Part shown: piece after piece, positions 5,717-49,367 of the stretch
Numbering within the stretch: the first letter of the stretch is position 1
How the letters are laid out: each line of letters begins with the position of its first letter
NCBI RefSeq assembly: GCF_001681715.1
Contig: NZ_LNWY01000006.1
Span: forward strand, 186,001 to 250,000
Source of the DNA: Tritonibacter mobilis
GTDB taxonomy: Bacteria > Pseudomonadota > Alphaproteobacteria > Rhodobacterales > Rhodobacteraceae
DNA: 64,000 bases
Reading direction: 5' to 3'
Notes under the pieces: generated by a model
Databases searched by the model: none
Told to the model about the DNA's origin: nothing
The model's input: only the letters and a program-made list of their open reading frames with translations
Translations under genes and position numbers: made by a program

Positions 5717-7381
5717 ATGGTTGTAGTTTTGAAAGTTCGTCAATATGGCGCGTTTGGTGTTTACCGGCCAGACGGAGAACCAATTCAACTTGGCGCAAAA
5801 CATCAGGCGCTTATGGCTCTGATGATTACCGCCGAAGAAGGCATTCGAACTCGGGCGTTTCTTGAGCATACGCTGTGGAGTTTTGCTCAGCCGGAGCAGG
5901 CCAAAGCAAGCCTGCGTACGGCATTGTCTACCCTGCGAAAACACATCGGACCCTCCGCGTCGGCTGCGTTGCGCGCCAACCGGGAACGGGTGACGCTTGA
6001 TCTCAGCATGATCGAGGTGGAGCAGGACACATCGCGCGGAGAATTCATGGAAGGCTTTGAACTTCCACATGAACATGCCTTTGCCGACTGGTTGTCAGAG
6101 ATGCGATCGCAGAGTGCAAACACCGCAACATCTGTGCAAGAGCAGCCTTGGGCACCGCGCGACAGAAGCCGCGTCATATTGGACGAATTGCTGCCGTCGA
6201 TTGCAGTATTGCCTTTTGCCCAGCGCTCGCCGGGTGGGGCGAGTGCGCCACTTGGTGCGATCTTGTCCGAAGAATTGTCACGGCAGCTATCGCGTAGTCA
6301 GGCGTTTTCCGTCACATCCTACATGGCGTCCCGGCAATTCAGCATCGAAGAGGTCCGCCCCGCAGAAGTTTCCTCAATTGCCGGGGTCAGTTACCTCGTT
6401 TCTGGCTCTGTTTTTGTGAGCGGTCATGATTTCATTTCGCAAATTGATTTGCATGACGCGCATCGTGAAAAAGTCATTTGGTCTCGGGAGTTTCGCGGGA
6501 GTCTTTCAGATCTCTTAATGGGGCAGAGCGGGTCTTTGCGTGATGCCACCAGCCAAATTGGCCAAACTGTTGTTGGAGAGGCCGTGCGATTGGTCAGTTT
6601 TCGACCGCTTTCCAATCTCGCCAATCATACATTGCTGATGGCTGCAATCGTGATGATGCAGAGCAAACATCACGATCAGTTTGAGAAGTCGAACGAGATC
6701 CTCGACACGCTGATGGAACGCGAGATGCACCACCCTGTCGTTCTGACATGGGCAGGCATTTGGCAGGTGATGCGGGTTCAAAAGGGGCTGTCGGACGATC
6801 GTCGCAAAAGCACCCTGATGGCGGAGAATCTCGCCAATGCAGCGCTGGCGCAGGACCCGGCGTTCTCTCTGGCTCATACGCTCAAGGGCATGATCGCGAG
6901 CTATCTGACGTTTGACTTCGACAATGCGCAATACTCCTACGACAAGGCGTTGCAGGACAACCCAAACGAGGCTCTGGCGCTGTTGTTGAAGGGGGCGACC
7001 CGCGCCATGCAGAATCGCCCGGATGAGGGGGTGTTGCTGACAGAGGCGGCGCGCAAACTTACCCCGCTGGGGCCGCAGCGGTACTATTTTGATTCACTCG
7101 CAGCCTCTGTGAGTCTTGCGGCACGCGATTACAATCGTGCGATAGAACTGGCAGATCAGTCGCTGCAGGAGAATGACAGCTATCCGTCGACCTTACGTAC
7201 CAAAGCGATCGCTCTGCAGATGTCGGGCCGCGCACAGGAGGCGCGTGATGTGGTCGAGTGCCTGATGAAGGTCACGCCGGATTTTTCACTGTCGCGCTAC
7301 ATGCAGGAACATGCTGCCGCCTTCACCCCGTCCGGCCCTGATTGGGCCAGCGCGTTGCGGGAGGCAGGTGTTCCAGAATAA
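5717..7381 (+). CDS. Winged-helix (OmpR/SARP-like) regulator with TolB-like and TPR regions
   Basis: A 554-residue protein. Residues 1 to about 100 look like an OmpR/PhoB- or SARP-type DNA-binding winged helix (LGAKHQALMALMI, then SLRTALSTLRKHIG). A middle region (about 158-280) begins SIAVLPFAQRS and runs through YLVSGSVFVSG, like the TolB-like/FlgO-type segment in many alphaproteobacterial proteins mislabelled as adenylate cyclase. The C-terminal half (about 340-530) is helical with TPR-like repeats. No transmembrane segment is seen, so it is probably a cytoplasmic regulator. It is followed by a strong terminator and stands alone. Its targets are unknown; control of the nearby envelope/T6SS block is only a positional guess. 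Confidence 0.75.
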   Translation: MVVVLKVRQYGAFGVYRPDGEPIQLGAKHQALMALMITAEEGIRTRAFLEHTLWSFAQPEQAKASLRTALSTLRKHIGPSASAALRANRERVTLDLSMIEVEQDTSRGEFMEGFELPHEHAFADWLSEMRSQSANTATSVQEQPWAPRDRSRVILDELLPSIAVLPFAQRSPGGASAPLGAILSEELSRQLSRSQAFSVTSYMASRQFSIEEVRPAEVSSIAGVSYLVSGSVFVSGHDFISQIDLHDAHREKVIWSREFRGSLSDLLMGQSGSLRDATSQIGQTVVGEAVRLVSFRPLSNLANHTLLMAAIVMMQSKHHDQFEKSNEILDTLMEREMHHPVVLTWAGIWQVMRVQKGLSDDRRKSTLMAENLANAALAQDPAFSLAHTLKGMIASYLTFDFDNAQYSYDKALQDNPNEALALLLKGATRAMQNRPDEGVLLTEAARKLTPLGPQRYYFDSLAASVSLAARDYNRAIELADQSLQENDSYPSTLRTKAIALQMSGRAQEARDVVECLMKVTPDFSLSRYMQEHAAAFTPSGPDWASALREAGVPE

Positions 7382-7609: not shown

Positions 7610-7684
7610 TGGGATGTAGCCAAGTGGTAAGGCAACTGTTTTTGGTACAGTGTACCGTAGGTTCGAATCCTACCATCCCAGCCA
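7610..7684 (+). tRNA. tRNA-Gln (anticodon TTG)
   Basis: The sequence folds as a complete tRNA. The 7-bp acceptor pairs TGGGATG with CATCCCA; the D arm is GCC/GGC. The anticodon stem ACTGT/ACAGT encloses TTTTGGT, giving anticodon TTG. The T arm GTAGG/CCTAC has loop TTCGAAT. Discriminator G and CCA (7682-7684) are encoded. Anticodon TTG reads the glutamine codon CAA. Confidence 0.97.
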
Positions 7685-7819: not shown

Positions 7820-9157
7820 TTAGCGCACGTCGAACGTCGTGATGGCCAGCGCCGCCTGACCTGAGAGGCTTCCTTGCAGCCCTGCAAAGACATCCTCTGC
7901 CAGACGACCATTCCGGTCCCGGATCTGTTGCATGGGACTGCGGCTGGCGATGGCGATGAGCATCTGGGCTGTGTCCCGGCGCGGGCCGGATCGGGTGACG
8001 GGGACGTCAAACCGGGTGAAATTACCGGATTGAGACAAAAAGCGCTGCAGATCCTGCACGACGCCATTGTTATCCACCAACAACAACGCCACGTATTTGC
8101 CGGCCGTGCCGCGCAATACGCCAGTCAGGCGCGTCCCGCTGGCGACACTGCTCGCATCAAGCCGCAGGCCCAGCCGGGTGGCTGGATAGTCCCGATTGTC
8201 CTTGATGTATTCCACTGCCGGGCATTGCCGCGGGTCAAGCAGGGTGCGGGTTTGCCGCAAATCGCTATCCGACTGGGTGAGAACGGTCTCGGAAAAGCGC
8301 GAGAACGCGGTGTCCTGAGCAGCCATCATATCGAGGCCGACGCCATCCTCTCCGTCACGACGGGGCAGGGTGAGCAGACATTCCTCCCCGGCGTTGGAGC
8401 GAATTTTGCGGATGAGATCACCCACCGCGAGATCCTGCGCACTGGCGGGCGGGCGGGCGGTCGTGGAACCTGTGGAGCGCCCCGGATCGGTGGCACCGCT
8501 AACGGGTGAGGGTAGGGCGGTAACAGGCTCCACACTCGCGATCTGGCTGATCACAACGGGTGCAGCCACCGCCGCGCCCGATGTGATCGGAGCGACCGCC
8601 ACCTGATCGCCAGTTGACGACGAAAGTGCTGTGACAGTTTCCGGGATCAGCGGGCTGGTGTCCTCGGGAATAAGGGGCGAAAGCGGGGCCGTCGGCGAGG
8701 TTGGCACCTCTTCAGGGGGAAGTGTTGTGGCGTCTGTCGCTGATGGTTCGGCATCGGGTGAGACCGGATCGGCAATGACCGGAGGGAGCGCTTCGACGGG
8801 GAGTGCCGCTGTCGGAGCGGGAGTGAGGGCGGTGAGTTTCTCCACCTCGCTCTCTTCCGGAGAGAGGCGTTCTGCCTCGCCTTCCAGGGCTGCAAGCTGC
8901 TCTGGTGTGCTGCTTTCGGTTACAGCTTCAGCGCCAGCCATGCCCTCGCGAAGTTCAAGCCCCGCGAGGGTGTCGGAATCCAGTGGTTGCAGGGTCACGC
9001 TGTATCGTGGCTGGTCGGGTGCCACTCCCGGTCCGGTCAGGAAGGGATGTAACCCGCCCAGAAGCAAAGCGCCAACTGCGACATGTGTCACTAATGAGCC
9101 GCTACCGGCAAGGAGCCAGTTGGGCGTGTCGGATTGGCCATAGGGGAGGATGCTCAC
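7820..9157 (-). CDS. TonB-like membrane anchor with periplasmic domain shared with PpkA
   Basis: A 445-residue protein at the end of an ExbB-ExbD-ExbD operon, in the place a TonB or TolA gene usually holds. A single N-terminal membrane span (GSLVTHVAVGALLLGGL, about residues 18-36) is followed by a long Pro/Ala/Thr/Glu-rich linker (about 45-240). It ends in a folded domain of roughly 190 residues, not a TonB C-terminal domain. That domain (QCPAVEYIKD, then LGLRLDASSVASGTRLTGVL) is similar by eye to the C-terminus of PpkA at 47274-49367 (QCSALDFVRT, then IGLSLSADEVESGAALQARI), with matching cysteines. It may belong to a DUF4384-like group. Start ATG overlaps the exbD stop by 4 bp. The partner of the motor is unknown. 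Confidence 0.72.
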   Translation of the reverse strand: MSILPYGQSDTPNWLLAGSGSLVTHVAVGALLLGGLHPFLTGPGVAPDQPRYSVTLQPLDSDTLAGLELREGMAGAEAVTESSTPEQLAALEGEAERLSPEESEVEKLTALTPAPTAALPVEALPPVIADPVSPDAEPSATDATTLPPEEVPTSPTAPLSPLIPEDTSPLIPETVTALSSSTGDQVAVAPITSGAAVAAPVVISQIASVEPVTALPSPVSGATDPGRSTGSTTARPPASAQDLAVGDLIRKIRSNAGEECLLTLPRRDGEDGVGLDMMAAQDTAFSRFSETVLTQSDSDLRQTRTLLDPRQCPAVEYIKDNRDYPATRLGLRLDASSVASGTRLTGVLRGTAGKYVALLLVDNNGVVQDLQRFLSQSGNFTRFDVPVTRSGPRRDTAQMLIAIASRSPMQQIRDRNGRLAEDVFAGLQGSLSGQAALAITTFDVR

Positions 9158-9558
9158 GTGTCTGCCTGCTCGTGGATTGTGACCAATGTGACATTGAGCG
9201 TCCCAAAGGGGGGCTGCGCCAGCAGTTCAAGCAAATCGAGCGCCGGTGCCGTGCGTTCCATCAGCACATAGAGTGACTGCCCGCCCTCCAGCATGTCATC
9301 AAGCTGAGAGAGCGCTACAGGCTCGCCGTCCAGTAACAGGCTGCCGTCGAGGCGCACCTCCAAGAGCGGGCTGGGCAGTTGTTCTGGCAAAAGCTCCTGT
9401 GTCGTCGGAAGGTCTATATCAGTATCCTGCGCAGATATCAGCGACCCGCTGGCGAGAAAGAACAAAAGCAGCAGCAGAACCACATTCACGATGGCCAGCG
9501 AGGTGTCGGTCTGCACCCGCTGTGCGCGCGGCGGCAAGAGGGGAGTACGGCGCACCAT
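9154..9558 (-). CDS. ExbD/TolR-family protein (second copy)
   Basis: A 134-residue protein with a short basic N-terminus, one membrane span (TSLAIVNVVLLLLLFFLASG, about residues 19-38) and a small periplasmic domain, as in ExbD/TolR. The Asp usual at the start of the ExbD membrane helix is not obvious: a Thr-Ser precedes the Leu-rich helix and Asp18 lies just outside it, so its proton-path residue may be displaced. It follows another ExbD-like gene and precedes the TonB-like anchor with an ATGA overlap. Two different ExbD-type subunits beside one ExbB-type subunit is seen in some Tol/Agl-like motors. Confidence 0.75.
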   Translation of the reverse strand: MVRRTPLLPPRAQRVQTDTSLAIVNVVLLLLLFFLASGSLISAQDTDIDLPTTQELLPEQLPSPLLEVRLDGSLLLDGEPVALSQLDDMLEGGQSLYVLMERTAPALDLLELLAQPPFGTLNVTLVTIHEQADT

Positions 9559-9560
9559 GG

Positions 9561-10016
9561 CTATAGCCCCCCAGCGCTGATCTGTACGGCTGTGACCTCG
9601 GCAGCCTGTAGATGCGCAAGCACAGTAGCGAGATCCTGCACACGGGCCGATGATTTGACGATCAAGATCACCGACGCAGGGGCGAGATCATCGCCCAATG
9701 CGGCAACAAGATCGGGGAGTGTTTCAAACCCGAAAGTTTGCCCTTGGATGACCATGCCATCTGCCCCGATGTTCCAGAGAGGCGCGGAAACGGCGGCGCC
9801 ACTGGGCAGAGGGGTGTCGGGGCTGGAACCCGCGCCGGAACCGACCCGCTGATCCGAGGCCGCATCGGTTCGGTTCAGTGTCAAAAGCGCGTAGGGTGTG
9901 AGGCTCGACGATAGCATAAAAAAGACCAGAAGCTGGAACATCACATCCGCAAGCGACGTCAGCGTGAAGGTCACGCGCCGCTTTCGGACAGGAAGATCAA
10001 GCCGGTTGATGTGCAT
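9561..10016 (-). CDS. exbD: ExbD/TolR-family protein (first copy)
   Basis: A 151-residue biopolymer-transport protein. The N-terminus is basic (PVRKRRVTFTLTSLADVMFQLLVFF), with the conserved membrane-helix aspartate in SLADVMFQLLVFFML (Asp24) that carries protons in ExbD/TolR/MotB relatives. The periplasmic part ends SSARVQDLATVLAHLQAAEVTAVQIS, typical of the ExbD fold. It lies 6 bp from exbB and 2 bp from the second exbD-like gene, so all are one operon. Expected to form the inner-membrane ion-driven motor with the ExbB-like protein and to act on the TonB-like anchor. Confidence 0.87.
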   Translation of the reverse strand: MHINRLDLPVRKRRVTFTLTSLADVMFQLLVFFMLSSSLTPYALLTLNRTDAASDQRVGSGAGSSPDTPLPSGAAVSAPLWNIGADGMVIQGQTFGFETLPDLVAALGDDLAPASVILIVKSSARVQDLATVLAHLQAAEVTAVQISAGGL

Positions 10017-10022
10017 TAGGTC

Positions 10023-10670
10023 TTAGCCTTGCTGGCGGGCGGACTGATCAACACGCCCGTGAATAGCAGCAGAGATCAGCACTTCGATCAGATTGCGTTC
10101 ACGCTCAATCCGTGCATCCAGCCAACTGGTCAGAAAATATGCAACAAGTGCGACCGCAAGCCCGGCCGCCGTTGTGGTCAGCGCGGTCCAGATCCCCCCC
10201 GCGAGTGCGGCAGGGTCCGCCGCGGCCTGTGTCTGGGCCAGTACCGAAAACGCATCGATCATGCCGATCACGGTGCCCAAGAGGCCCAACATGGGGGCCG
10301 CATGCACGGCGATTTCCAGCAGGCGAATACGATCAGACAGGGTTGCAAGCTCTGAGATCGCGGTCTGGCGACCCAGTTCCTCGGCATAGGCTGTTTCACC
10401 CGGGCGGGCACGCAGCCCGGTAAAGACTGCGTGCAGGATGCGCGAGAGCACGGATTTGCGCGCTGCCGCCTGTTGCATCGCGGCTTCGGCCTGACCGGAG
10501 AGCCATGTGTTGATGATCTGTTCGGCCATCTGCCGTTTGCCAACCCCAAGGCGCGAGAACTGGAGCAGTTTGAAGATAAAGACCGACAGTACGGTGAGGG
10601 ACATCACGCCCAGCGCTGCAAAAACGACCAGTGTCAGCGGATCAAACATGTCCGCCCGAAAATTACTCAT
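10023..10670 (-). CDS. exbB: ExbB/TolQ/MotA-family proton-channel protein
   Basis: A 215-residue inner-membrane protein with three spans: LTLVVFAALGVMSLTVLSVF near the N-terminus, then the paired helices around APMLGLLGTVIGMIDAFSVL and IWTALTTTAAGLAVALVAYF. These last two carry the ExbB/TolQ signature Gly, Thr and Thr residues lining the proton path. The ATG at 10670 is preferred over an in-frame GTG at 10694 because GGAG sits about 8 nt before it. It is the first motor gene of the ExbB-ExbD-ExbD-anchor set. The family is certain; whether it serves TonB-type uptake, Tol-like envelope maintenance or something tied to the T6SS is not. Confidence 0.9.
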   Translation of the reverse strand: MSNFRADMFDPLTLVVFAALGVMSLTVLSVFIFKLLQFSRLGVGKRQMAEQIINTWLSGQAEAAMQQAAARKSVLSRILHAVFTGLRARPGETAYAEELGRQTAISELATLSDRIRLLEIAVHAAPMLGLLGTVIGMIDAFSVLAQTQAAADPAALAGGIWTALTTTAAGLAVALVAYFLTSWLDARIERERNLIEVLISAAIHGRVDQSARQQG

Positions 10671-10733
10671 GGGGTTACTCCACAGCGCGGTCACGTCAGG
10701 CGGGACCGCGCGTCAATGCAAAAAGGGCGTGGT

Positions 10734-11186
10734 TTAAATACCGAACTGGATTGGGGTGCGCGAGCTTGCGACAAGCCCATTCATGCACAAGTCGCTGGGA
10801 TTTCCATCGCCTGCGATACAGGCGGGGGAATCATTGACCACGATGCGGGAGATCGACCCGCATTCCGTTTCGGCCAAGTCGAATTGCAGAACCTTTGTTT
10901 TGCCTTCGCTGAGGGCACCGAATTCAAGCACCAGCAGGCGTGTGACAACACCTTGGCCATCAAACAGAGCAATCTGATAGGAGGCGCGATCGAGAGCCGT
11001 TGAGGACTGATTTGCCGCCACATAGGTCAGGCGGCAGCTGCCTTCTGTCGTTTCTGTCACGGAGTTGAGGTCGAGCTGAAATGCCTCGGCGTCCTGCGTT
11101 GCATCCTGAGACCAGAGCGCAGTTGCCTGTAGTGTCAGCAGCGCGGTAGCCAGAACCGTTGTCTTGGCCGCAGTCATAATGCCCAT
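10734..11186 (-). CDS. Secreted hypothetical protein upstream of exbB
   Basis: About 150 residues with a clear Sec-type signal peptide (MTAAKTTVLATALLTLQATALWSQ). The mature part has four Cys (SCRLTY, ETECGS, SPACIAG, DLCMNG) that could form two disulfides, and a beta-strand-rich pattern such as YQIALFDGQGVVTRLLVLEF. I do not recognise the family. The ATG at 11186 is chosen because GGGGG precedes it closely; the frame is open further up to 11246. It lies 63 bp upstream of exbB in the same direction and probably shares its transcript, which suggests a periplasmic partner of the motor. Confidence 0.65.
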   Translation of the reverse strand: MGIMTAAKTTVLATALLTLQATALWSQDATQDAEAFQLDLNSVTETTEGSCRLTYVAANQSSTALDRASYQIALFDGQGVVTRLLVLEFGALSEGKTKVLQFDLAETECGSISRIVVNDSPACIAGDGNPSDLCMNGLVASSRTPIQFGI

Positions 11187-11292
11187 GATACCCCCAATGA
11201 GTCTGAATAAAGAAATCGCGGCCATTTGGGCGATAATCCAGCGCACAGGTCAACCGGGAATTTGGGGATTTATTTCTCCCAGAGGGAGAGAA

Positions 11293-12062: not shown

Positions 12063-12476
12063 ATGAAGCTAAGCGTTTTGTCTGGGGTCGTTGCTGCTTT
12101 GACAACGCTTGTGCCCAATGCGGGGCAGGCGAAGTTCACTTTTTGCAACCAGACGTTGGATGTTGCGAATGTTGCGATCTCTGCTTTCAACGACGGTGCA
12201 TTTGAAAGCTCTGGGTGGTGGGTGGTCGGCCCCAACCAATGCGCGGAGGTCATTAGTCAGAGTTTGCGATCTCGTTTTGTCTATGTGTTTGCCAAGGATG
12301 TCTTTGGGCGTGCGCTGCTGGATGGTGTTGCGTCCATGTGTGTGGATACCGGGCGGTTTCAGATCCGGGGAGAAGAAGAGTGCCTGACTCGCGGCTATAT
12401 TGATGCCCGTTTTCATGAGGTAGACACGCAGCAGTCCGACAGCTGGACATTTTTTCTGCGGTCTGCTGCGGATTAA
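12063..12476 (+). CDS. DUF1036 family secreted protein
   Basis: 137 residues with a Sec signal peptide (MKLSVLSGVVAALTTLVPNAGQA) and a mature domain matching the DUF1036 pattern. It opens KFTFCNQT, then SSGWWVVGPNQCAEV, then YVFAKD, and has four Cys likely to pair as disulfides. DUF1036 proteins are small periplasmic or secreted proteins common in alphaproteobacteria, function unknown. It leads the plus-strand set with the caspase-like and peptidoglycan-hydrolase genes, so it may act in the cell envelope. Confidence 0.82.
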   Translation: MKLSVLSGVVAALTTLVPNAGQAKFTFCNQTLDVANVAISAFNDGAFESSGWWVVGPNQCAEVISQSLRSRFVYVFAKDVFGRALLDGVASMCVDTGRFQIRGEEECLTRGYIDARFHEVDTQQSDSWTFFLRSAAD

Positions 12477-12554: not shown

Positions 12555-13943
12555 TTGAGGCTGGTTTTGTCGTTTTCCTCTCGTTGGTTTGCTTATGTGC
12601 TGGGGGCGTGCGGATGCCTGTGGAGTGACGTCGCCGCCGCGCAGGATTGGTCTGCCTTGGTGGTCGGCGACACAGGCCAGGGTGCGGGGCGCGCCTTTGC
12701 TGACAGTTATTACGCCGCACGCGCCCTAGAAGACTTTGGCGGGGCGCCCGTAACTTTGCTGCGAAATGCCAGCTATGACGCCGTCTCCGCTGATTTTGAC
12801 GACTTAAGCGGAAAGACGCAGGTTGCGTTCTATTTTGCAGGCCCGTTGGAGGGCGGAATGCAGGTCGACGGGCGCAGATTTGAGATAGGCTCCGGCATTG
12901 CACGTTTGCAGAGTGCGGGTTTGAAACATGTATTGTTGATGTTCGAAAACTGCGCAGGAGATGCGCGGACCGCCGCGCCACTACCCGAGATTGGTGAGGG
13001 GATATCTGATCTGAGTGTCGTGGTGCTGGCCAGTGCGGGGGCGGCGCAGGCCTGTCCGCCCGCTGGAGAGCGTCTGAGTGATACCCTGAAACAGGTCGGG
13101 AAGGCCGAGGCGCTGATGGTGCCGGAACTTGCAGCTTATGTGCAGCAGGGCGAACTTGATGATTTGCCGGATCAACCGCAGCCACAAAGCGATGCGGTCG
13201 CGTCCACACCGGCGCGACGAGATCAGGTGCTGATTACCGATGTGGTGCGGGTGATCCCCGCCAGCGCACCGGCAGGATTGACGCCGGTAAGCGTGCCTGC
13301 GGCCTCTACCCAGCGCAGACCGAAACGGTCGGATGCATCAGCTCCGGTTGTGATTTTCTCTCCGGTTTCCAATCAGCAGCTCGCGGCGCTACCACAGGCG
13401 GATGGGCTGCCGGAACCTTCGATTATCGTGGGCCTTATTGAAGGCGCGGATCAGAACTTTGATGCGGCCCTTGATCCGTCTGATCTGTCTGGCAATGAGA
13501 TCAGCTATGACAATGTCGAGGCGCGCCGAAGATTGATGCGGCAAGATCCGGATCTTTATGCGGGATTGCTGGCAAGTGGTGCTTTTGATCCACCGGGTCC
13601 ATTGCTGGTGCGGGCATTGCAGCAGGAATTGGCGCGTATGGGCTGTTATACCAGTCGCGTTGATGGTGCTTGGGGGGCAGGGTCGCAACGCGCGGTGGTG
13701 CGCTATTATGACGAAGCGGGTGTGCAGGTGGCGACGCAGGCGGCGGAGGTCTCGCTTTATCGGGATATTATTGGCCGTGAAGATGTGACCTGTACGGCCC
13801 CCGTGGCTGCCGTGCCGCAGCCTCGGCGCAATACCAGCCCGGCGCCGACAACGCGCGGTCCAGCCGCCCAACCGGCTGCACCGCGCACCCCCGCGCAGAC
13901 CCAGATCGCTCCCGGTGCGGCACTGGGTGGTGTGTTTCGCTAG
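12555..13943 (+). CDS. Caspase-like (C14-type) protein with C-terminal peptidoglycan-binding-like domain; catalytic His apparently lost
   Basis: About 460 residues with a signal peptide (cut after VAAAQ). Residues about 32-200 read like a bacterial caspase-like domain: the first strand ALVVGDTGQGAG replaces the usual ALVIGN, YFAGPL (93-98) sits where the family has YFSGHG, and FENCAGD (Cys133) sits where the nucleophile motif lies. Pro97 replaces the catalytic His, so it is probably a pseudo-protease. A Pro-rich linker leads to a PG_binding_1-like domain (LQQELARMGCYTSRVDGAWG, about 353-425), and the end is GVFR. Start is uncertain: TTG at 12555, or TTG at 12567, which has GAGG 6 nt upstream. 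It precedes the M23/transglycosylase gene by 11 bp. Confidence 0.72.
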   Translation: MRLVLSFSSRWFAYVLGACGCLWSDVAAAQDWSALVVGDTGQGAGRAFADSYYAARALEDFGGAPVTLLRNASYDAVSADFDDLSGKTQVAFYFAGPLEGGMQVDGRRFEIGSGIARLQSAGLKHVLLMFENCAGDARTAAPLPEIGEGISDLSVVVLASAGAAQACPPAGERLSDTLKQVGKAEALMVPELAAYVQQGELDDLPDQPQPQSDAVASTPARRDQVLITDVVRVIPASAPAGLTPVSVPAASTQRRPKRSDASAPVVIFSPVSNQQLAALPQADGLPEPSIIVGLIEGADQNFDAALDPSDLSGNEISYDNVEARRRLMRQDPDLYAGLLASGAFDPPGPLLVRALQQELARMGCYTSRVDGAWGAGSQRAVVRYYDEAGVQVATQAAEVSLYRDIIGREDVTCTAPVAAVPQPRRNTSPAPTTRGPAAQPAAPRTPAQTQIAPGAALGGVFR

Positions 13944-13954
13944 GCTGAGACCGG

Positions 13955-16102
13955 ATGGCATATACCATCAATCCAGCCTTTCGTAAGGCGAAAACGCAAG
14001 CCCGCAAGCGTCGGCGGCGCCGCCTCTTTCTGCGGCTTGGTGGTGCGACGGCGGTTCTTGCGGCGCTGTCCGGCGTTGGTCTTTGGTGGATAGGGCGCAG
14101 TGGCGCGGATCTTGATGCAGAACTGGCGATGGTGCCGACGGAGACGGCGGTGCCTGATCCTTCGGTGCAGCAGGCGCGGGTGCGGGCAATGCTCAATCTG
14201 CGCCGTGCGCCCATGATGCTGCATGTGGAAGAGACCGGCGATCAGGCGATGCGAGAATTGGCCTTACCCGCAGGCCAGCCATTGATCCGCGACGGCCGGC
14301 CAGAGCCTTTGCCGATTTCGTTGTTGCAGGATGATCTGTTGACGGCGGGGCGCAATCTGGTCCTGCAACTGCCGTCGGGACGCGATGATTTTGCGCTGTT
14401 TCAGGCGCAACGACGCGATGCGCTGGAGGCGGCGCAAGAAGAGGGGCGCAATACCTTGCTGGCGCGTGACGCCAGCGTGGCGCTGACGATCCCATCGACT
14501 CGCCGCTCTGCATTGTTCAACGACGAGATCATTGTCCTAAACACCGACAGGTCGCTGCGCGATGTGCTGGTGGACAGTGGCATTGATGCCGCGCAGGCCG
14601 AGAGTATTGCCTCCGCCACCATTCGGATCGGCGAGTTGGGTGAGACCCTTGTTGCAGGAAGCGTGGTCGCGCTGCGCTCTCGTAACCGGACGGGACAGGC
14701 GGATACGCCGTTGCTTTTACAGCTGTCGCTTTATGGCCCGGACAGGTTCTTGGTCAGCCTTGCCCAAAACGGGCCGGGTCGTTTTGCCAGCGCTGCTGAC
14801 CCGTGGGCGGAAAAAGACTTGCTGCAACGCTCTGGCCAGCTGGTCAGTACTGAGATGCCGGGGCGCAATGTGCGCTTGATGGATGCGCTATACTCCACTG
14901 CGCTGCGCAACGGTGTGCCCACTGGTATCGTGGGTGAGTTGATCGTGATGATGTCGCGCCGATTTGATCTGGAACGTCTGGCGGAGCAGGGGGATCGGAT
15001 CACCCTGCTGTTTTCAGGCCAGCCTGACACCGGAAGTGCCGGGCAAATCCTCTATGCGGGGATTGAGGGGCCTTCGGGAGAGATGCGCTGCTATGTGACG
15101 GCGCTACCGGGGCCGGAAGGGGGCTTTGGCTGCTTTGACGCGGGAGAAGCGGGCGTCAGTGGGATGCGGCTTGGGGCCGGGCTGGCAATCCCTGTGCGAG
15201 GGGTGAAGACCAGCGGGTTTGGAATGCGCATGCACCCGATCCTCAAGAAAATGAAGCCGCACAATGGGGTGGATTGGGCAGCCCCCGAGGGCACGCCGAT
15301 CTTTGCTGCACGGGCGGGCACGATCCGCGCCGCCGGGGACAGTGGCGGCTACGGCAACCTCGTGGCAATCACGCATGAGGGCAACATGGAGACGCGCTAT
15401 GCCCACATGCAACGCTTTGCGGACGGGATTGCACCGGGTGTCACCGTCGCGGCGGGTCAACAGATTGGCTATGTGGGGACCACAGGACGTTCGACCGGCC
15501 CGCATCTGCATTTCGAGCTTTGGGTGGATGGTCGCCCGACCGACCCCGCACAATATGGCAGCAGTGCGGTCGCGTCGCTTGTGGATCGTATTATCCATGT
15601 CGAAAGCGGTGGCAATGCCACGGCGCAAAACCCGCTATCCTCGGCCACCGGTGCTGGGCAGTTCATCTCCAGCACCTGGGTGCGCATGATGAATACCTAT
15701 CGCCCCGATCTGGTTGAGCAGCTGACCCGGGAGGAACTGCTGGATCTGCGCAACGATCCGGTACTAAGCCGCGACATGGTGCAACGTCTGGCGCAGGAAA
15801 GTGAAAGCTATCTGCGCGCACGTGGGCATCAGGTCACTGCAGGGCGGCTGTATCTGGCGCATTTCCTTGGCGCGGCCGGGGCCAATCAGGCGCTTTCCAG
15901 TGACCCGAATCTGAGTGTGGAAGAGGTGATGGGGGCCGGAGTGGTCTCTGCCAACCCGTTCTTGCGCGGTAAGAACATCTCGGACCTTCTTACGTGGGCC
16001 GATCGCAAGATGCAATCGCGGGGGCAGCGTGTCGCAGTGGTGATCCCACCACAGGTGAAGGCGTATATGACCCGGATTGATGCTTTGCTGGCAGATCTCT
16101 GA
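13955..16102 (+). CDS. Bifunctional peptidoglycan hydrolase: M23 endopeptidase fused to lytic transglycosylase-like domain
   Basis: A 715-residue protein. A very basic N-terminus (KRRRRR) precedes one membrane span (about 28-50), so the rest faces the periplasm. After a region of about 350 residues (likely helical/LysM-like OapA-type), an M23 LytM domain spans about 415-530. Its zinc residues are His436 and Asp440 (HNGVDW), a His in RYAHM, and His517/His519 (PHLHFEL). A lysozyme-like transglycosylase domain follows (about 540-660) with Glu550 in HVESGG and GAGQFISSTW. It would cut both peptide crosslinks and glycan strands. Starts 11 bp after the caspase-like gene, probably the same transcript. 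The location beside the T6SS suggests local wall opening for a trans-envelope machine. Confidence 0.88.
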   Translation: MAYTINPAFRKAKTQARKRRRRRLFLRLGGATAVLAALSGVGLWWIGRSGADLDAELAMVPTETAVPDPSVQQARVRAMLNLRRAPMMLHVEETGDQAMRELALPAGQPLIRDGRPEPLPISLLQDDLLTAGRNLVLQLPSGRDDFALFQAQRRDALEAAQEEGRNTLLARDASVALTIPSTRRSALFNDEIIVLNTDRSLRDVLVDSGIDAAQAESIASATIRIGELGETLVAGSVVALRSRNRTGQADTPLLLQLSLYGPDRFLVSLAQNGPGRFASAADPWAEKDLLQRSGQLVSTEMPGRNVRLMDALYSTALRNGVPTGIVGELIVMMSRRFDLERLAEQGDRITLLFSGQPDTGSAGQILYAGIEGPSGEMRCYVTALPGPEGGFGCFDAGEAGVSGMRLGAGLAIPVRGVKTSGFGMRMHPILKKMKPHNGVDWAAPEGTPIFAARAGTIRAAGDSGGYGNLVAITHEGNMETRYAHMQRFADGIAPGVTVAAGQQIGYVGTTGRSTGPHLHFELWVDGRPTDPAQYGSSAVASLVDRIIHVESGGNATAQNPLSSATGAGQFISSTWVRMMNTYRPDLVEQLTREELLDLRNDPVLSRDMVQRLAQESESYLRARGHQVTAGRLYLAHFLGAAGANQALSSDPNLSVEEVMGAGVVSANPFLRGKNISDLLTWADRKMQSRGQRVAVVIPPQVKAYMTRIDALLADL

Positions 16103-17306: not shown

Positions 17307-20030
<2,724 letters not shown>

Positions 20031-20062
20031 GAAACAGGGGCCTCGATTGGGCCGCACACCTG

Positions 20063-28000: not shown

Positions 28001-29314
28001 TCAGTCAAATTTCCCATGTTTGGCGGCAGCGTCCGCGTATGCTTGTGCAAATGCCTTCAGGAAGACGTCCAACATGCCGTGCTCTGCCTCAGAGGCCTTC
28101 TTGTCCCAACGCGCGACATAGCTGTCCCATAGTTTACTGCGACGGCTGCCGCCCAGAAGCGCGCGCCCCTCTTCGGATGATTCGATTTCCTCGGGCGATA
28201 ACCCCATGAGAACCGCAGCAAGCGCAGGTTGCAGCGCGGCAAAAACGGCCTGCTGATGCCCGCGCAAGTCTGCAAGCGCCGAGGCAAAGCTCTCGGGCCC
28301 CTCCATGAAGCCTTCGCGCGGGGTCAGAAACATGGTGTCCATGGCTTGATGAGGATCGGGCAGGAATTTCAAAGGGTTGTTGCCATGGGCGTTGCGCATG
28401 GTGCGCTCGCCACCTTTGGTGAACTGTTTGACGCTGGCACGATCTTGCAACATGCGCATGATCTCTCCCGTGGCCGAGGACACCGCCTGTCCAAGCGCAT
28501 GAGCGAGCTTTTCAGGATCAGCGCTGCCTGCGAGTTGCGGATCAAGCCCCGCGCCTTCGCAAAATGCACGTAAAACAGCCGCGCCACTGTCGGCTGCGGG
28601 CGCCTGCGCCGGTTGGGCGGCGGCTTGCATCGCCTGACTGGGAGGCGTCGCCGGGGTGGCTTGCGGCGGATGAGCGGGGGAGGCTGGCGAGGGCATCGGC
28701 ATCGGCGCAATGGGCGCTTGTCCTGCCGCAGGTTCGGCGGGCGGCACATAAGGCGATGGGGTCGTTGGTGGCGGTGACGGGATGGGTGGTGGTGTGGCAG
28801 GTGCGGCCTGCGCCGGTGGCATTTGTGGCGTGAGTTGCAGGAACTCTTGTGCCACGTCATCAAAAGCGTGCGCACTGGCAGGTGCACGTGGCAATGGGTT
28901 GACCGGATCTTGCGGCTGCAGCCCCAAATCCCATGGGTCAACCTCTTCGTCGCTCGTCCCATAGCCGGGCTGTGGTATTGCAGCAGGCTGCGCGCCAGCG
29001 GCCCCGCTCTCCACCGCGATGATATAATGCCCGACGACCAGCCGCTCACCGCCACGTAGCTGAACCGCTCCTTGGATGCGGTGATGCTGCCCCTGCATAA
29101 AGGTCCCGTTGGTCGACACATCTGTCAGCCAATAGGCACCATCATGAAAGCTCACATCAAAGTGATGCCCGGAGACGTGCCGTGACGGATCGGGTAGCAC
29201 CCAATCCATGGCACGGTTGCGCCCGACGTTGATGCTGTTTTCCTGTAGCGTGATCCAGGCTGGGCTGCCGTCCTGCAGCAATTCAAAATTTTCCAGTCGC
29301 AGGGTCAGTGTCAT
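28001..29314 (-). CDS. tagH: T6SS-associated FHA-domain protein TagH (Fha)
   Basis: 437 residues. The N-terminal FHA domain (about 25-105) carries the phosphothreonine-binding marks GRN and HVSGHHFDV, then STNGTFMQG. A long Pro/Ala-rich linker (about 125-245) is followed by the conserved C-terminal domain of TagH-type proteins (RAFCEGAGLDP through GEIMRMLQDR and NPLKFLPD). Fha proteins read PpkA-dependent Thr phosphorylation and promote T6SS assembly; in Agrobacterium Fha binds phosphorylated TssL. ppkA, pppA and a candidate TssL target are all in this window. Confidence 0.93.
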   Translation of the reverse strand: MTLTLRLENFELLQDGSPAWITLQENSINVGRNRAMDWVLPDPSRHVSGHHFDVSFHDGAYWLTDVSTNGTFMQGQHHRIQGAVQLRGGERLVVGHYIIAVESGAAGAQPAAIPQPGYGTSDEEVDPWDLGLQPQDPVNPLPRAPASAHAFDDVAQEFLQLTPQMPPAQAAPATPPPIPSPPPTTPSPYVPPAEPAAGQAPIAPMPMPSPASPAHPPQATPATPPSQAMQAAAQPAQAPAADSGAAVLRAFCEGAGLDPQLAGSADPEKLAHALGQAVSSATGEIMRMLQDRASVKQFTKGGERTMRNAHGNNPLKFLPDPHQAMDTMFLTPREGFMEGPESFASALADLRGHQQAVFAALQPALAAVLMGLSPEEIESSEEGRALLGGSRRSKLWDSYVARWDKKASEAEHGMLDVFLKAFAQAYADAAAKHGKFD

Positions 29315-45826: not shown

Positions 45827-46492
45827 ATGACAGCCCAAATTGGACTATTGGGAAAACACCCGGGGTATGGGGACTTCCTGCGCGCCAATGTCGAGACATC
45901 TGTCATTGAGCATTTGGAGACGTGGTTAGAACAGGCTCTTGCAGAGATCCGCGACCAGCAAGGGCAGGCGTGGCCTGCGTTCTGGCAACAGGCTCAGGAT
46001 TTGAGGTTCTGGATCGGGCGCGCTGTGCTTGGGCGCAGTTTGATGGGGGTGATGCGGTGCTCTCAGGATCGGGCCGGGCGGCGCTACCCGTTGATTTTGA
46101 TCGCTCAGGGCGCGGCGGTCGCAGCCCCGATCAAGGATGGCGACCAGTCTGCTTATGAGGCGCTTTCGGCACATTTCTCGGCGATGCAGCCGGGGCAGGG
46201 TGGGTCTGCCTTGCTGGATGGGTTGCAATTGCAACTCCCTGAGGAGGATGAGGAAACCGCCCGCACCGGAGACACTCTTTGGGCGCATCAGCCCAATGGC
46301 GATCTGGCGGCGCTGTTAGATGCTGCGGGCGGGGCAGATGCAGAACGCGCATTGCTCAACCGCAGTTACTGGTGGTCTCCTGCGACGGAAACAAAGGCCG
46401 CAGTCTGGCTTGGCTGTGCCGGTCTTCCGTCTGCTGCGGCACTGCATTGGCTATTGGCCGGAGCACCTCATGCGCGCGAAGGGGCCGAGTGA
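45827..46492 (+). CDS. tagF: T6SS-associated protein TagF
   Basis: 221 residues of the TagF (DUF2094/ImpM) family. The N-terminus IGLLGKHPGYGDFLRAN is diagnostic, followed by RFWIGRAVLGRSLMGVM and RRYPLILIA. TagF represses T6SS activity post-translationally, in some species through Fha. In several alphaproteobacteria TagF and PppA are fused; here they are separate genes joined by a TGATG overlap. GGAG in the end of tssM serves as ribosome site. Confidence 0.94.
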   Translation: MTAQIGLLGKHPGYGDFLRANVETSVIEHLETWLEQALAEIRDQQGQAWPAFWQQAQDLRFWIGRAVLGRSLMGVMRCSQDRAGRRYPLILIAQGAAVAAPIKDGDQSAYEALSAHFSAMQPGQGGSALLDGLQLQLPEEDEETARTGDTLWAHQPNGDLAALLDAAGGADAERALLNRSYWWSPATETKAAVWLGCAGLPSAAALHWLLAGAPHAREGAE

Positions 46493-47277
46493 TGACAAAT
46501 GCGCTGCAGTTCGGGTTTGAGACAGGCCTTGCAACGGATGTTGGATGTCGCCGCGAAATCAACGAAGATTCACTGCTCGCCCGTCCTGACCTTGGCTTGT
46601 GGGTCGTCGCGGATGGCATGGGCGGTCACGCTGCCGGAGATTTCGCAAGCCAGACCATTGTGCGGTATCTCGACACGGTGGGCTGCGCTGTCTCACCAGA
46701 AGATCTGGTCGCGCGAACGATGGAGCGGCTGCATCGGGCCAATGATGTGATCCGGGCGCGCAGTGCAGAGCTTGGTGGCAGCACCATTGGCGCAACTGTT
46801 GTGATCGTGCTGGCGCATGGGCCGGCGTTTTCGTGTATCTGGGCGGGCGACAGTCGCGTGTATTTGCATCGCGCGGGGCAATTGGTGCAGCAAACGCGCG
46901 ATCACACTGAAGTCAACGCATTGCTGGCGGCGGGAACCATCTCGGAAACAGAGGCCGAAAACTGGCCGCGCAAGAATGTGATCACCCGCGCTGTAGGGGT
47001 CGATGACACTGTGAAATGCGACCAGATTCAGGGGCAGTTGCAGTCGGGAGATGTGTTGCTGTTATGCTCGGACGGCCTGACAGAACATATGAAAGACCAC
47101 GAGATTGCACAGTGCCTTGCCGCTCTGCCGCCGCAACAGGCCTGTGATGAATTGATCCGCGAAACGCTCGCAAGAGGTGCGAAGGACAATGTCACCGTGG
47201 TTGCACTCCGCTGTACTCAGACCCCAATTGGTGAGGGCGATGCATTGGATGAAGATGTCCTGGATGACCTCGCATGA
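46492..47277 (+). CDS. pppA: T6SS protein phosphatase PppA (PP2C type)
   Basis: 261 residues of the PPM/PP2C family. Metal-site motifs are in order: GCRREINEDS, VVADGMGGHAAGD, WAGDSRVYL, LCSDGLTEH and AKDNVTVV. PppA reverses PpkA phosphorylation and so opposes Fha-dependent activation. ATG at 46492 overlaps the tagF stop; a GTG one codon earlier is possible. Its stop overlaps the ppkA start (ATGA). The acidic tail (DALDEDVLDDLA) is unusual. Confidence 0.95.
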   Translation: MTNALQFGFETGLATDVGCRREINEDSLLARPDLGLWVVADGMGGHAAGDFASQTIVRYLDTVGCAVSPEDLVARTMERLHRANDVIRARSAELGGSTIGATVVIVLAHGPAFSCIWAGDSRVYLHRAGQLVQQTRDHTEVNALLAAGTISETEAENWPRKNVITRAVGVDDTVKCDQIQGQLQSGDVLLLCSDGLTEHMKDHEIAQCLAALPPQQACDELIRETLARGAKDNVTVVALRCTQTPIGEGDALDEDVLDDLA

Positions 47278-49367
47278 GTGATGCAGATAAACCCGAAGAC
47301 GGCCTCACGCCCGAGGTCCACGACGAGGATGATGAGCGAACGCGCCTGATCGCTGCTGATCCGTCTATCGAGGTAGCGCCTGCTGATCCTTCATCGCCTC
47401 CGGTACCGATGCCCTCGTCGCCGTCCGTCCCAGAGGGGAGTGAGGCAACCGAGTTGCAACCGATCCCTGCGCCGACGTCAACTGAGATAAAAGATCCGGC
47501 ACAGATCACGCTGGCTCCGGGGACGGTCATCAACAATAACTACCGAATCCAAGCGGCGCTCAAGAGTGGCGGCATGGGCGAGGTTTATCGCGGCGTTGAG
47601 GTTGGGACCGAAGATCCCGTGGCGATCAAGGCGATCCGTCCGGATCTGATCCGGGATGCACAAGCCAGCGAGATGTTTCGCCGCGAGGCGCGTACCCTGC
47701 GTCTGCTGCACGACGATGCGATCGTGCGCTATTACAACTATGTTCATGATCGTGATCTGGACCGTTATTTTCTGGTGATGGAGTTCATCGACGGCATTCC
47801 GCTGTCCGATCACATACACCAATACGGTGCGTTACCTGCTGCGGCAGGGCAGACGCTGATTGAGCGTATCGCCAACGGGCTTGCCAAGGCGCATGCCAAG
47901 GGGGTGGTGCACCGAGATCTTTCTCCCGACAACGTTATGCTCGCCAGCGGTATCATTAGCGAGGCGCGCCTGATCGATTTTGGCATCGCCAAGGCGCAAA
48001 CCCTCTCGGAAGGGACCATCGCCGGGCAATTTGCCGGAAAATTCAAATATGTCGCGCCGGAACAGCTGGGCCACTTTGGGGGACAGATGGGTGCGGCGGT
48101 GGATGTCTACGGATTGGGTCTGCTTGCTGCGGCTGCGTTGCGGGGCAAGCCGCTGGATATGGGCAGCTCCATCGTTGAGGCCGTCGAAGCGCGCCGCAAG
48201 ATCCCTGATCTCAGTGATGTTCCGGCGCAGTTTCGCCCGCTCTTGTCTCATATGCTGGAGCCAGAGCCCACCCATCGCCCGGCCACGATGCGTGATGTGC
48301 TGAATTATCTGGAAAACCCCTCAGCAATTCCTGCGCATTATTTTCAAGATGGTTTCACTCCGCACAATATCGGACAGGCTGGCGCAACAACGGCGTCACA
48401 TTTGTCGCTGCCACCGCAAGGGACTATGACCGGGCTACAGGTGCCAACACCTGCCCATACATCACATGTCTCTGCTTACCCTACGGCGCAGGCTATTGCC
48501 CCGAACCCATTTCAGGAGGAGCCACCCAAACGCCGAAATGGGGTGTTGTGGGCGGGGTTGCTTTGTGTGGTGACTGCCGGTGGCGGCTGGTACGCGTGGC
48601 AATCCGGGGTACTCAATGTAGGTGCAGAGCAACAAACTGCGGCGCAGGAGGAGAACACATCGGCTGCCTCCAATGGTGATCTCCCTTCGGTTGCGGGTGA
48701 TACCAGAGAGGGGTTCTTGGCATTGCTCGACACCGGAGCGTGTAGTTTCAGCACACGGCTGTCTACAGGTCAGAATGCGGGTCGGATAGAAACATATTCG
48801 ACCACCGATGGCGGCTTTGAGGGGTTACCTGCGGCCTATGAGGAACGGTTTGGCGCAAGGCCATCGGTGTTGCCCCGCGAGGTCAATTCTGAGCAATGCA
48901 GTGCGTTGGACTTTGTGCGCACTTTGCAAGGGCGTTGGCCGCACCCGATTGGCCTGTCACTCTCGGCCGACGAGGTTGAAAGCGGCGCGGCTTTGCAGGC
49001 GCGGATAAACAGTCAGGTGGGGCGGCCTGTTTGGGTGGCGCTCGTTAGTCCCAATGGAAATCTCTACAATCTGACACAGCGTCTCAGCAGCACTGGTTCT
49101 GGAGGCTATACGCTGGACTTTGGGCTGACACTGGCACAGGGAGCCGAGGCTGCACCACAGCTGATCCTTGCCGTGTCCAGCAGCGCGCCTCTTACCCGCG
49201 CGGCCTTGTTGCGAGACGGCAGTTCGAGCGCGCGCGTCTTGCCAGAGATTCTCGATGAAATCCGCAGTAAAAACCTCGAAGCCAGCGCGGCCCTTACCTA
49301 TGTGCGCCTCAACCCGGTTTCCGAAGCGTCGCCGGAAGATACGGGTGAGGTTCCAGATCAGGAATAG
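47274..49367 (+). CDS. ppkA: T6SS Ser/Thr protein kinase PpkA
   Basis: 697 residues. An acidic N-terminal extension (1-85) includes DDERTRLIA. The Hanks-type kinase domain (about 88-350) has the Gly loop SGGMGEVYRG, Lys in VAIKAIR, catalytic loop HRDLSPDN (Asp215) and DFG. Ser replaces the usual Lys in HRDLKPDN, as in many bacterial kinases. A membrane span (VLWAGLLCVVTAGGGWYAW, about 424-442) leads to a periplasmic domain (about 475-690) similar by eye to the end of the TonB-like protein at 7820-9157. PpkA phosphorylates T6SS targets recognised by Fha. Last gene of the plus-strand T6SS arm. Confidence 0.93.
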   Translation: MSDADKPEDGLTPEVHDEDDERTRLIAADPSIEVAPADPSSPPVPMPSSPSVPEGSEATELQPIPAPTSTEIKDPAQITLAPGTVINNNYRIQAALKSGGMGEVYRGVEVGTEDPVAIKAIRPDLIRDAQASEMFRREARTLRLLHDDAIVRYYNYVHDRDLDRYFLVMEFIDGIPLSDHIHQYGALPAAAGQTLIERIANGLAKAHAKGVVHRDLSPDNVMLASGIISEARLIDFGIAKAQTLSEGTIAGQFAGKFKYVAPEQLGHFGGQMGAAVDVYGLGLLAAAALRGKPLDMGSSIVEAVEARRKIPDLSDVPAQFRPLLSHMLEPEPTHRPATMRDVLNYLENPSAIPAHYFQDGFTPHNIGQAGATTASHLSLPPQGTMTGLQVPTPAHTSHVSAYPTAQAIAPNPFQEEPPKRRNGVLWAGLLCVVTAGGGWYAWQSGVLNVGAEQQTAAQEENTSAASNGDLPSVAGDTREGFLALLDTGACSFSTRLSTGQNAGRIETYSTTDGGFEGLPAAYEERFGARPSVLPREVNSEQCSALDFVRTLQGRWPHPIGLSLSADEVESGAALQARINSQVGRPVWVALVSPNGNLYNLTQRLSSTGSGGYTLDFGLTLAQGAEAAPQLILAVSSSAPLTRAALLRDGSSSARVLPEILDEIRSKNLEASAALTYVRLNPVSEASPEDTGEVPDQE

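What the first reader, a model, noticed from the sequence alone, without database searches (positions are those of the whole stretch)
7820..10670. ExbB-ExbD-ExbD motor ending in a TonB-like anchor without a TonB domain
The gene order is that of a TonB/Tol motor, but the anchor's C-terminal domain is not TonB or TolA, and there are two different ExbD-type subunits. No TonB-dependent receptor is nearby. This suggests a dedicated envelope motor with an unknown load.
Basis: partly seen in the sequence, partly recalled or inferred. Interest (0 to 1): 0.7.

Follow-up and report, generated by a model that had tools for sequence, protein, structure and literature searches.

The report
TonB-type motor built into T6SS
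A proton-powered motor of the kind that usually drives nutrient uptake sits inside the gene cluster of a bacterial protein-injection weapon, and the tip of its lever is a copy of the sensor domain of the enzyme thought to switch that weapon on, which suggests that the weapon may be controlled or placed by membrane energy.

Summary
In detail: hyp170-ExbB-ExbD1-ExbD2-anchor form one closely spaced block (7820-11246, minus strand) at the edge of a T6SS cluster. The load is not wholly unknown. The anchor's periplasmic C-terminus matches the periplasmic C-terminus of the cluster's own Ser/Thr kinase (profile-profile E about 5e-24; control pairs 0.015-0.64), and no TonB model matches it (0 of 61 homologues). 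The anchor keeps the TonB/TolA-type transmembrane S-x3-H motif (motif recalled) and ExbD1 the proton-carrying Asp. In a 295-genome family sample the set occurs in 51 of 72 TssG-positive and 0 of 223 TssG-negative genomes. A second T6SS lineage carries a parallel set whose different anchor domain again matches its own kinase (E 1.3e-13). The same genome holds a sister cassette, hyp170-ExbB-ExbD-ExbD with a classical TonB beside a TonB-dependent receptor. I read this as a TonB energiser repurposed for T6SS, its receptor-binding domain exchanged for the kinase's sensor domain. Most likely mechanism, not shown: the motor works on the kinase's periplasmic partner and so gates T6SS assembly. Nothing listed by 10 library searches (several lists capped) describes it. 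New variant of a known kind.

The parts
7820..9157 (-). Anchor protein (445 aa): N-terminal TM with S-x3-H, Pro-rich linker, periplasmic C-terminal domain (about aa 240-445) homologous to the kinase's C-terminus
9154..9558 (-). ExbD2; transmembrane Asp replaced by Asn
9561..10016 (-). ExbD1; transmembrane Asp kept
10023..10694 (-). ExbB/TolQ-type proton channel subunit
10734..11246 (-). hyp170: presumably secreted Ig-like protein, four invariant Cys in the family, usual partner of the motor; true start probably lies inside this ORF
12063..12476 (+). DUF1036 protein, divergent neighbour (58 of 78 related loci)
12555..13943 (+). Protein with a weak peptidoglycan-binding match (below Pfam's cut-off), relative in 66 of 78 loci; in lineage B (G005) a caspase-domain (C14) gene lies next to the motor
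13955..16102 (+). M23 peptidoglycan endopeptidase (51 of 78 loci); a second, transglycosylase-like match is below cut-off
17307..20057 (-). TssH/ClpV-type AAA protein, nearest T6SS core gene
28001..29314 (-). FHA-domain protein (TagH/Fha-like), presumed kinase substrate
46279..47277 (+). PP2C phosphatase (counterpart of the kinase); the true start probably lies inside this ORF
47274..49367 (+). T6SS Ser/Thr kinase; its periplasmic C-terminus (about aa 480-690) is homologous to the anchor's

Best explanation
It is a proton-motive-force motor of the TonB class, repurposed as an accessory of a Rhodobacterales type VI secretion system. Shown by sequence: ExbB with two ExbDs (one with, one without the proton-carrying Asp), an anchor with a TonB/TolA-type transmembrane motif, near-exclusive linkage to T6SS, and a C-terminal domain that is a paralogue of the periplasmic domain of the T6SS Ser/Thr kinase. 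Inferred: the stator moves the anchor; its C-terminal domain engages the same periplasmic partner as the kinase (or the kinase itself), and force on that partner changes the kinase's activity and so the phosphorylation of the FHA protein and T6SS assembly. It would play the part that TagQRST plays for PpkA in Pseudomonas aeruginosa, but powered by the proton gradient. hyp170 is a periplasmic helper inherited from the TonB cassette.
For: Anchor versus kinase C-terminus: 28% over 105 aa, E 7e-8; profile-profile E 4.7e-24 with 25 and 16 sequences and 5.6e-24 with 78 and 56; control pairs 0.015-0.64. A Cys and a Gln-Cys pair are invariant in both alignments. Same rule in a second T6SS lineage: B anchor versus B kinase E 1.3e-13 (controls 0.11 and 0.18). 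Occurrence: 51 of 72 TssG-positive genomes, 0 of 223 TssG-negative ones (recounted). In 78 public loci, 64 have a T6SS gene within the stretch at E<1e-20 and 56 the kinase. S-x3-H in the anchor TM: A 60 of 81 (8.8 expected by shuffling), B 32 of 36 (2.5 expected); near-copies and repeated genomes are among them. ExbD1 Asp 81/81 A and 14/14 B. Anchor-kinase distance correlation r 0.80, the highest of the pairs that could be computed; partial r 0.42 given ExbB and TssM, p 0.001.
Against: No expression or functional data. The set is not needed for keeping a T6SS: 21 of 72 TssG-positive genomes lack it by these searches, among them an A-like cluster whose kinase keeps the domain by eye (G121) and B-like clusters (G197, G219, G226). 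A shared domain shows a shared kind of ligand at most. The domain is also fused to a murein endopeptidase in G004, so it may be a general envelope-binding module rather than a signalling one. In lineage B the anchor scanned matches DUF4384 but two B kinases scanned (G005, G293) do not, so that link rests on the profile comparison. In the distance test anchor-TagF and anchor-ExbD1 also gave partial r 0.38.
Confidence: 0.5

Rival explanations
1. Envelope placement or opening: the motor pulls on a cell-wall or outer-membrane element to position the T6SS membrane complex or to let it through the wall, together with the neighbouring M23 endopeptidase, in T6SSs that lack the outer-membrane lipoprotein TssJ. 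The kinase shares the domain because it is targeted to the same site.
For: In the 78 A loci an M23 relative is found in 51, the possible peptidoglycan-binding protein in 66 and DUF1036 in 58. The domain is fused to MepA in G004. TssJ was found in 1 of 51 motor-positive and 13 of 21 motor-negative T6SS genomes (Fisher 3.5e-8, which ignores relatedness). In Acidovorax citrulli the kinase PpkA binds an outer-membrane anchor, TssW, that places the T6SS (PMC12607579, passages).
Against: 8 genomes have neither TssJ nor a motor that I found, and G031 has both, so TssJ loss may simply be older and lineage-wide. In lineage B no relative of the window's M23 protein was found in the stretches read.
Confidence: 0.27
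2. Outer-membrane upkeep: a Tol-Pal-like motor that stabilises or repairs the envelope around the firing apparatus.
For: Tol/TonB-class motor, wall enzyme nearby, Ig-like periplasmic parts.
Against: No TolB or Pal match among the cluster proteins scanned with Pfam; the genome has another TolR-type ExbD elsewhere on the contig with an OmpA-type protein nearby. Does not explain the kinase domain.
Confidence: 0.1
3. A TonB system for uptake through an outer-membrane protein, linked to T6SS as a metal-acquisition weapon.
For: Sister cassette in the same genome is hyp170-ExbB-ExbD-ExbD-TonB beside a receptor. A very large ORF of unknown kind in the cluster (30501-39188) has a relative annotated as an outer-membrane autotransporter in Rhodovulum.
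Against: No receptor in 84 stretches, no TonB_C in 61 homologues, and the C-terminal domain is that of the kinase. A relative of the large ORF is seen in only 13 of 78 loci, as far as the stretches reach.
Confidence: 0.06
4. Linkage without function: the cassette is a passenger of the T6SS island.
For: Found on plasmids in 15 records; beside a tRNA in this window; clusters without it persist.
Against: The gene set is conserved in 77 of 78 loci, in two T6SS lineages, with a domain shared with the kinase in each, and 0 of 223 genomes without TssG have it.
Confidence: 0.05

Closest known systems
TonB-ExbB-ExbD energiser (here the sister cassette hyp170-ExbB-ExbD-ExbD-TonB, G000:C28)
   Same: Gene order, hyp170, two ExbDs with D/N split; lineage A motor genes group with the TBDR-type cassette genes (100/98) in the four-gene tree, which is unrooted
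   Different: TonB C-terminal domain not detected and kinase-type domain in its place; no receptor; T6SS linkage
TagQRST-PpkA-Fha-PppA threonine phosphorylation pathway of T6SS
   Same: Kinase with periplasmic domain, PP2C phosphatase and FHA protein in the cluster
   Different: Here an ExbB/ExbD motor carries the kinase's periplasmic domain; I did not search for TagQRST
Tol-Pal (TolQRA)
   Same: MotA/TolQ/ExbB and TolR/ExbD families; TolA-type anchor TM motif (recalled)
   Different: No TolB/Pal match among the cluster proteins scanned with Pfam; no TolA C-terminal match
AglRQS gliding motor of Myxococcus and ZorAB of Zorya (recalled from general knowledge)
   Same: TolQ/MotA-type subunits put to non-uptake work; Agl uses one TolQ-type and two TolR-type subunits
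   Different: Different anchors and loads; ZorA matched ExbB only at E 0.016
TssW-PpkA-Fha axis of Acidovorax citrulli (PMC12607579, passages)
   Same: Accessory envelope factor acting through the T6SS kinase
   Different: [quoted passage not shown] 'ExbB' and 'proton motive' occur 0 times in the main text

Membership tests
TonB system | ExbB-type channel subunit | tested here: met
   PF01618 1.2e-25
TonB system | ExbD with a transmembrane Asp | tested here: met
   ExbD1 D in 81/81 A rows; ExbD2 N in 79/81
TonB system | Anchor TM with S-x3-H (motif recalled for TonB/TolA) | tested here: met
   SLVTH in the window; 60/81 A, 32/36 B
TonB system | TonB C-terminal domain (sequence model) | tested here: not met
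   0 of 61 homologues at E up to 0.1; sister TonB matches TonB_2 at 1.3e-11
TonB system | TonB fold of the anchor's C-terminus | tested here: inconclusive
   Second half Ig-like; first half (alpha-beta-beta-alpha-beta-alpha) hardly tested because Ig chains fill the list
TonB system | TonB-dependent receptor nearby | tested here: not met
   None on the contig; none in 84 stretches
T6SS accessory module | Encoded within T6SS clusters | tested here: met
   64 of 78 loci have a T6SS gene at E<1e-20; 8 of the other 14 are cut by contig ends
T6SS accessory module | Co-occurs with T6SS across genomes | tested here: met
   51/72 versus 0/223
T6SS accessory module | Affects T6SS activity | not testable with these tools
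   needs mutants
TagQRST module | TagQ, TagR, TagS, TagT proteins | not tested
   no search made
Tol-Pal | TolA C-terminal domain | tested here: not met
   0 of 61 anchors match TolA at E up to 0.1
Tol-Pal | TolB and Pal beside the motor | tested here: not met
   no such Pfam family among the neighbouring proteins scanned; the regulator at 5717-7381 has a weak TolB-propeller match (19 bits, cut-off 343), far below the cut-off
DUF4384 (PF14326) | Pfam match of the anchor C-terminus | tested here: not met
   Lineage A 0 of 61; lineage B example L042 1.7e-8. A versus B profiles E 0.14, so a distant tie is open

The most novel reading that the evidence does not exclude
T6SS firing in these bacteria is directly gated by the proton motive force: an ExbB/ExbD stator drives a mimic of the kinase's sensor domain against the kinase's periplasmic partner. 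TonB-type motors were recruited to this task twice, each time by grafting the local kinase's sensor domain onto the lever.
Probability: 0.25. Interest if true: 0.9.

Novelty: new variant of a known kind. Interest (0 to 1): 0.72.

Why it matters
How T6SS kinases sense the envelope is open outside the TagQRST model; the mBio 2025 paper says that in species without TagQRST PpkA activates the T6SS constitutively (PMC12607579, passages). Here a defined motor carries the kinase's own sensor domain, in 51 of 72 T6SS-positive genomes of the sample, so the idea that membrane energy gates or places the T6SS can be tested with one point mutation. It also gives a clear case of a TonB motor being turned to a new load by exchange of one domain, with the unmodified sister cassette in the same genome.

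Tried and rejected
Considered and rejected: plain TonB uptake system (no TonB_C in 61 homologues; no receptor in 84 stretches). Two ExbDs as a peculiarity: the TBDR-type cassettes have them too. Assignment of the window's C-terminus to DUF4384: 0 of 61 anchors and 0 of 16 kinases.

Inconclusive: whether lineages A and B are one or two recruitments. The concatenated hyp170-ExbB-ExbD-ExbD tree puts A with the TBDR-type cassettes (100/98) and B apart, and a B plus TBDR-type clade is rejected (p 0.005), but A plus B as one clade is not (p-AU 0.193). For A only every third locus plus the window was used in the trees (27 rows). The TolQ row of the ExbB-only tree was filled in only 40% of the columns, so its root is not usable.

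Inconclusive: TssJ exclusion. TssJ (PF12790) was found in 14 of 72 genomes, but motor-free, TssJ-free clusters exist (G121, G131, G197, G219, G221, G226, G247 and the incomplete G273) and one cluster has both (G031), so lineage can explain it.

Rows dropped before counting: of 22 genomes, G004 (endopeptidase fusion), G028 and G273 (kinase only) were not counted as motors, and G159 was added after its ExbB was found, giving 20 A. Of 32, G122 was a kinase, giving 31 B. G028 lacks TssG but holds other cluster genes and a hyp170 beside DUF1036, so it may be a T6SS genome with gaps. For the B anchor of G272, at a contig end, ExbB and ExbD were not seen. The TssG-negative genomes were searched with the two anchor queries only, and the first look scored a few candidates a genome, so counts of motors are lower bounds.

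The class-wide anchor search found 6 of 385 genomes, all outside the family; none of the six stretches read held an ExbB match. Class-wide hyp170 found 38 of 385. Of 20 loci looked at, 16 lie outside the family and 6 of these show ExbB beside hyp170 within the 3 kb held, so outside the family hyp170 is often seen without it. The 12 stretches then fetched showed no match to T6SS genes, and the gene after ExbD in the 4 that I read looks like classical TonB, judged by eye. PDB sequence searches gave nothing usable. TonB or TolA folds are not among the 50 VIA rows, which is not evidence of absence. The kinase N-domain control failed (nan). Papers: ten searches were answered. I saw listings (for instance 25 of 96, 20 of 79 and 15 of 197 papers), passages of PMC11837500 and PMC12607579, a term search of PMC2660368 (no hits) and the abstract of PMC11881912. 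None of what was listed or shown describes an ExbB-ExbD set as part of a T6SS; unlisted papers and subscription papers were not seen.
Full report
Anatomy. On the minus strand the window carries hyp170 (10734-11246), ExbB (10023-10694), ExbD1 (9561-10016), ExbD2 (9154-9558) and the anchor (7820-9157), closely spaced. On the other side of a divergent gap lie DUF1036, a protein with a weak peptidoglycan-binding match and an M23 endopeptidase; then a ClpB-type AAA protein (TssH by homology to annotated tssH), TssG and TssF, a gp25-like protein (TssE by homology), Hcp, TssC, TssB, TssA, the FHA protein and a DUF6931 protein, a 2895-aa ORF without Pfam match, TssK, TssL, TssM, TagF and PP2C phosphatase and a Ser/Thr kinase. 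VgrG was not searched for, and TssJ was not found in the genome.

The anchor. It has no Pfam or NCBIfam match. A search of its own genome gave a second place, inside the T6SS kinase. BLASTP gives 28% identity over 105 aa, E 7e-8. Alignments of 25 anchors and 16 kinases compare at probability 99.6 and E 4.7e-24 over 198 columns; a Cys and a Gln-Cys pair are invariant in both. A larger set (78 and 56 rows) gives 5.6e-24, while profiles of hyp170, ExbD1 and ExbB give 0.032-0.64 against the anchor. The AlphaFold model of the domain is confident (pLDDT 90.5) with an alpha-beta-beta-alpha-beta-alpha part followed by a beta part; the best VIA match is 4kh9_B, a DUF4785 protein, Z 9.2, 3.4 A over 98 residues, and many antibody domains follow at Z about 8, so only a common Ig-like arrangement is claimed for the second part.

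Motor chemistry. The transmembrane Asp of ExbD is kept in ExbD1 of all 81 lineage A rows and replaced by Asn in ExbD2 in 79 of 81 (one Ser, one gap); the TBDR-type cassettes show the same split (22/22), lineage B has Asp in both (14/14). The anchor's TM carries S-x3-H in 60 of 81 A and 32 of 36 B anchors, against 8.8 and 2.5 expected from shuffling; near-copies and repeated genomes are among them. That S-x3-H is the TonB/TolA motif, and that this Asp carries the proton, is recalled.

Distribution. Among 295 genomes of the family, 72 have TssG. After removing four hits that are not motors and adding one found through ExbB, 20 lineage A and 31 lineage B sets remain, all in TssG-positive genomes: 51 of 72 versus 0 of 223 (recounted). 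A scan of one genome for each of 84,980 species found 78 loci; by the names in their record titles they belong to Rhodobacterales (not checked in the taxonomy). 77 have ExbB, both ExbDs and the anchor, 73 hyp170; 64 have a T6SS gene at E<1e-20 within the stretch and 56 the kinase, and 8 of the 14 without are cut by contig ends. The scan relied on one short pattern, so it reaches only relatives of this lineage. Fifteen plasmid records match; the six that I opened, of Leisingera, Sagittula, Thioclava, Paracoccus, Tritonibacter and Rhodovulum, show the set among annotated T6SS genes.

A second lineage. G005 and G293 carry hyp170-ExbB-ExbD-ExbD-anchor beside another T6SS. The G005 anchor's C-terminus is DUF4384 (1.7e-8). 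The anchors of this lineage match its kinases at E 1.3e-13 (30 anchors, 7 kinases), although the two kinases scanned with Pfam (G005, G293) do not reach DUF4384. Across lineages the domains are hardly recognisable (A anchor versus B anchor 0.14, A kinase versus B kinase 0.0028). So in each lineage the anchor carries the domain of its own kinase. This is the main reason for thinking that anchor and kinase work on one partner. It fits two graftings or one with joint divergence; the four-gene tree does not decide.

Origin. The same genome holds, on C28, receptor - hyp170 - ExbB - ExbD - ExbD - TonB, the last with a TonB C-terminal match of 1.3e-11. Loci with hyp170-ExbB-ExbD-ExbD of this type were found in other genomes of the family; a receptor is visible beside 11 of the 23 read, with only 1.5 kb held on each side, and their last gene was not examined. 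The T6SS set therefore looks like this energiser with TonB's receptor-binding domain exchanged.

Mechanism. Shown: composition, conserved motor residues, T6SS linkage, domain shared with the kinase. Inferred from the families: a proton-driven stator moves the anchor. Inferred: the anchor acts on the kinase's periplasmic partner. Conjecture: this gates kinase activity. Literature used: TagQRST activates PpkA, which phosphorylates Fha1, and PpkA interacts with an outer-membrane anchor in A. citrulli (PMC12607579, passages); P. aeruginosa H1-T6SS answers outer-membrane breach (PMC11881912, abstract). A distance-matrix test agrees modestly: anchor versus kinase C-termini r 0.80, partial r 0.42 given ExbB and TssM, p 0.001, 33 non-redundant loci; but anchor-TagF and anchor-ExbD1 reach 0.38, and one planned control (kinase N-domain) failed.

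Against. T6SS clusters without the motor exist: G121 has hyp170 but no ExbB, ExbD or anchor after it, and its kinase keeps the domain by eye. The domain also occurs fused to a murein endopeptidase (G004), which favours an envelope-binding role. TssJ was found in 1 of 51 motor-positive and 13 of 21 motor-negative T6SS genomes, which could mean replacement of an outer-membrane link or only lineage history.

Verdict. New variant of a known kind: a TonB-class motor wired to the T6SS kinase pathway. None of the papers listed by ten literature searches, several of them capped lists, describes it as far as titles, abstract openings and the passages seen show.

Noticed in passing
window 7610-7684: A tRNA-Gln gene lies just beyond the anchor's stop codon, at the edge of the T6SS cluster.
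   Followed up: no
L061:8142-10289: A MepA-type (M74) murein endopeptidase is fused to the same C-terminal domain as anchor and kinase (anchor match 7e-9).
   Followed up: partly
window 10734-11246; L206:11091-11534; L311-L314: hyp170 is an Ig-like family without Pfam match, with four invariant Cys in the lineage A alignment; 38 of 385 genomes of the class have it. Outside the family 6 of 16 loci show ExbB beside it within 3 kb.
   Followed up: partly
window 30501-39188: A 2895-aa ORF next to tssK has no Pfam match; its relative in Rhodovulum is annotated as an outer-membrane autotransporter.
   Followed up: no
L032:34842-41221: A type III secretion gene cluster lies about 13 kb from the motor on a Leisingera plasmid.
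   Followed up: no
window 5717-7381: A regulator-like protein with TPR repeats lies next to the motor (Trans_reg_C match below Pfam's cut-off).
   Followed up: no
L286:3718-4203: In G121 hyp170 is present while the motor genes are not, perhaps a natural loss.
   Followed up: partly
L040:3475-7371 and L043:2511-6689: In lineage B clusters a 1299- to 1393-aa ORF matches both TssB and TssC, as if a fused or duplicated sheath protein.
   Followed up: no
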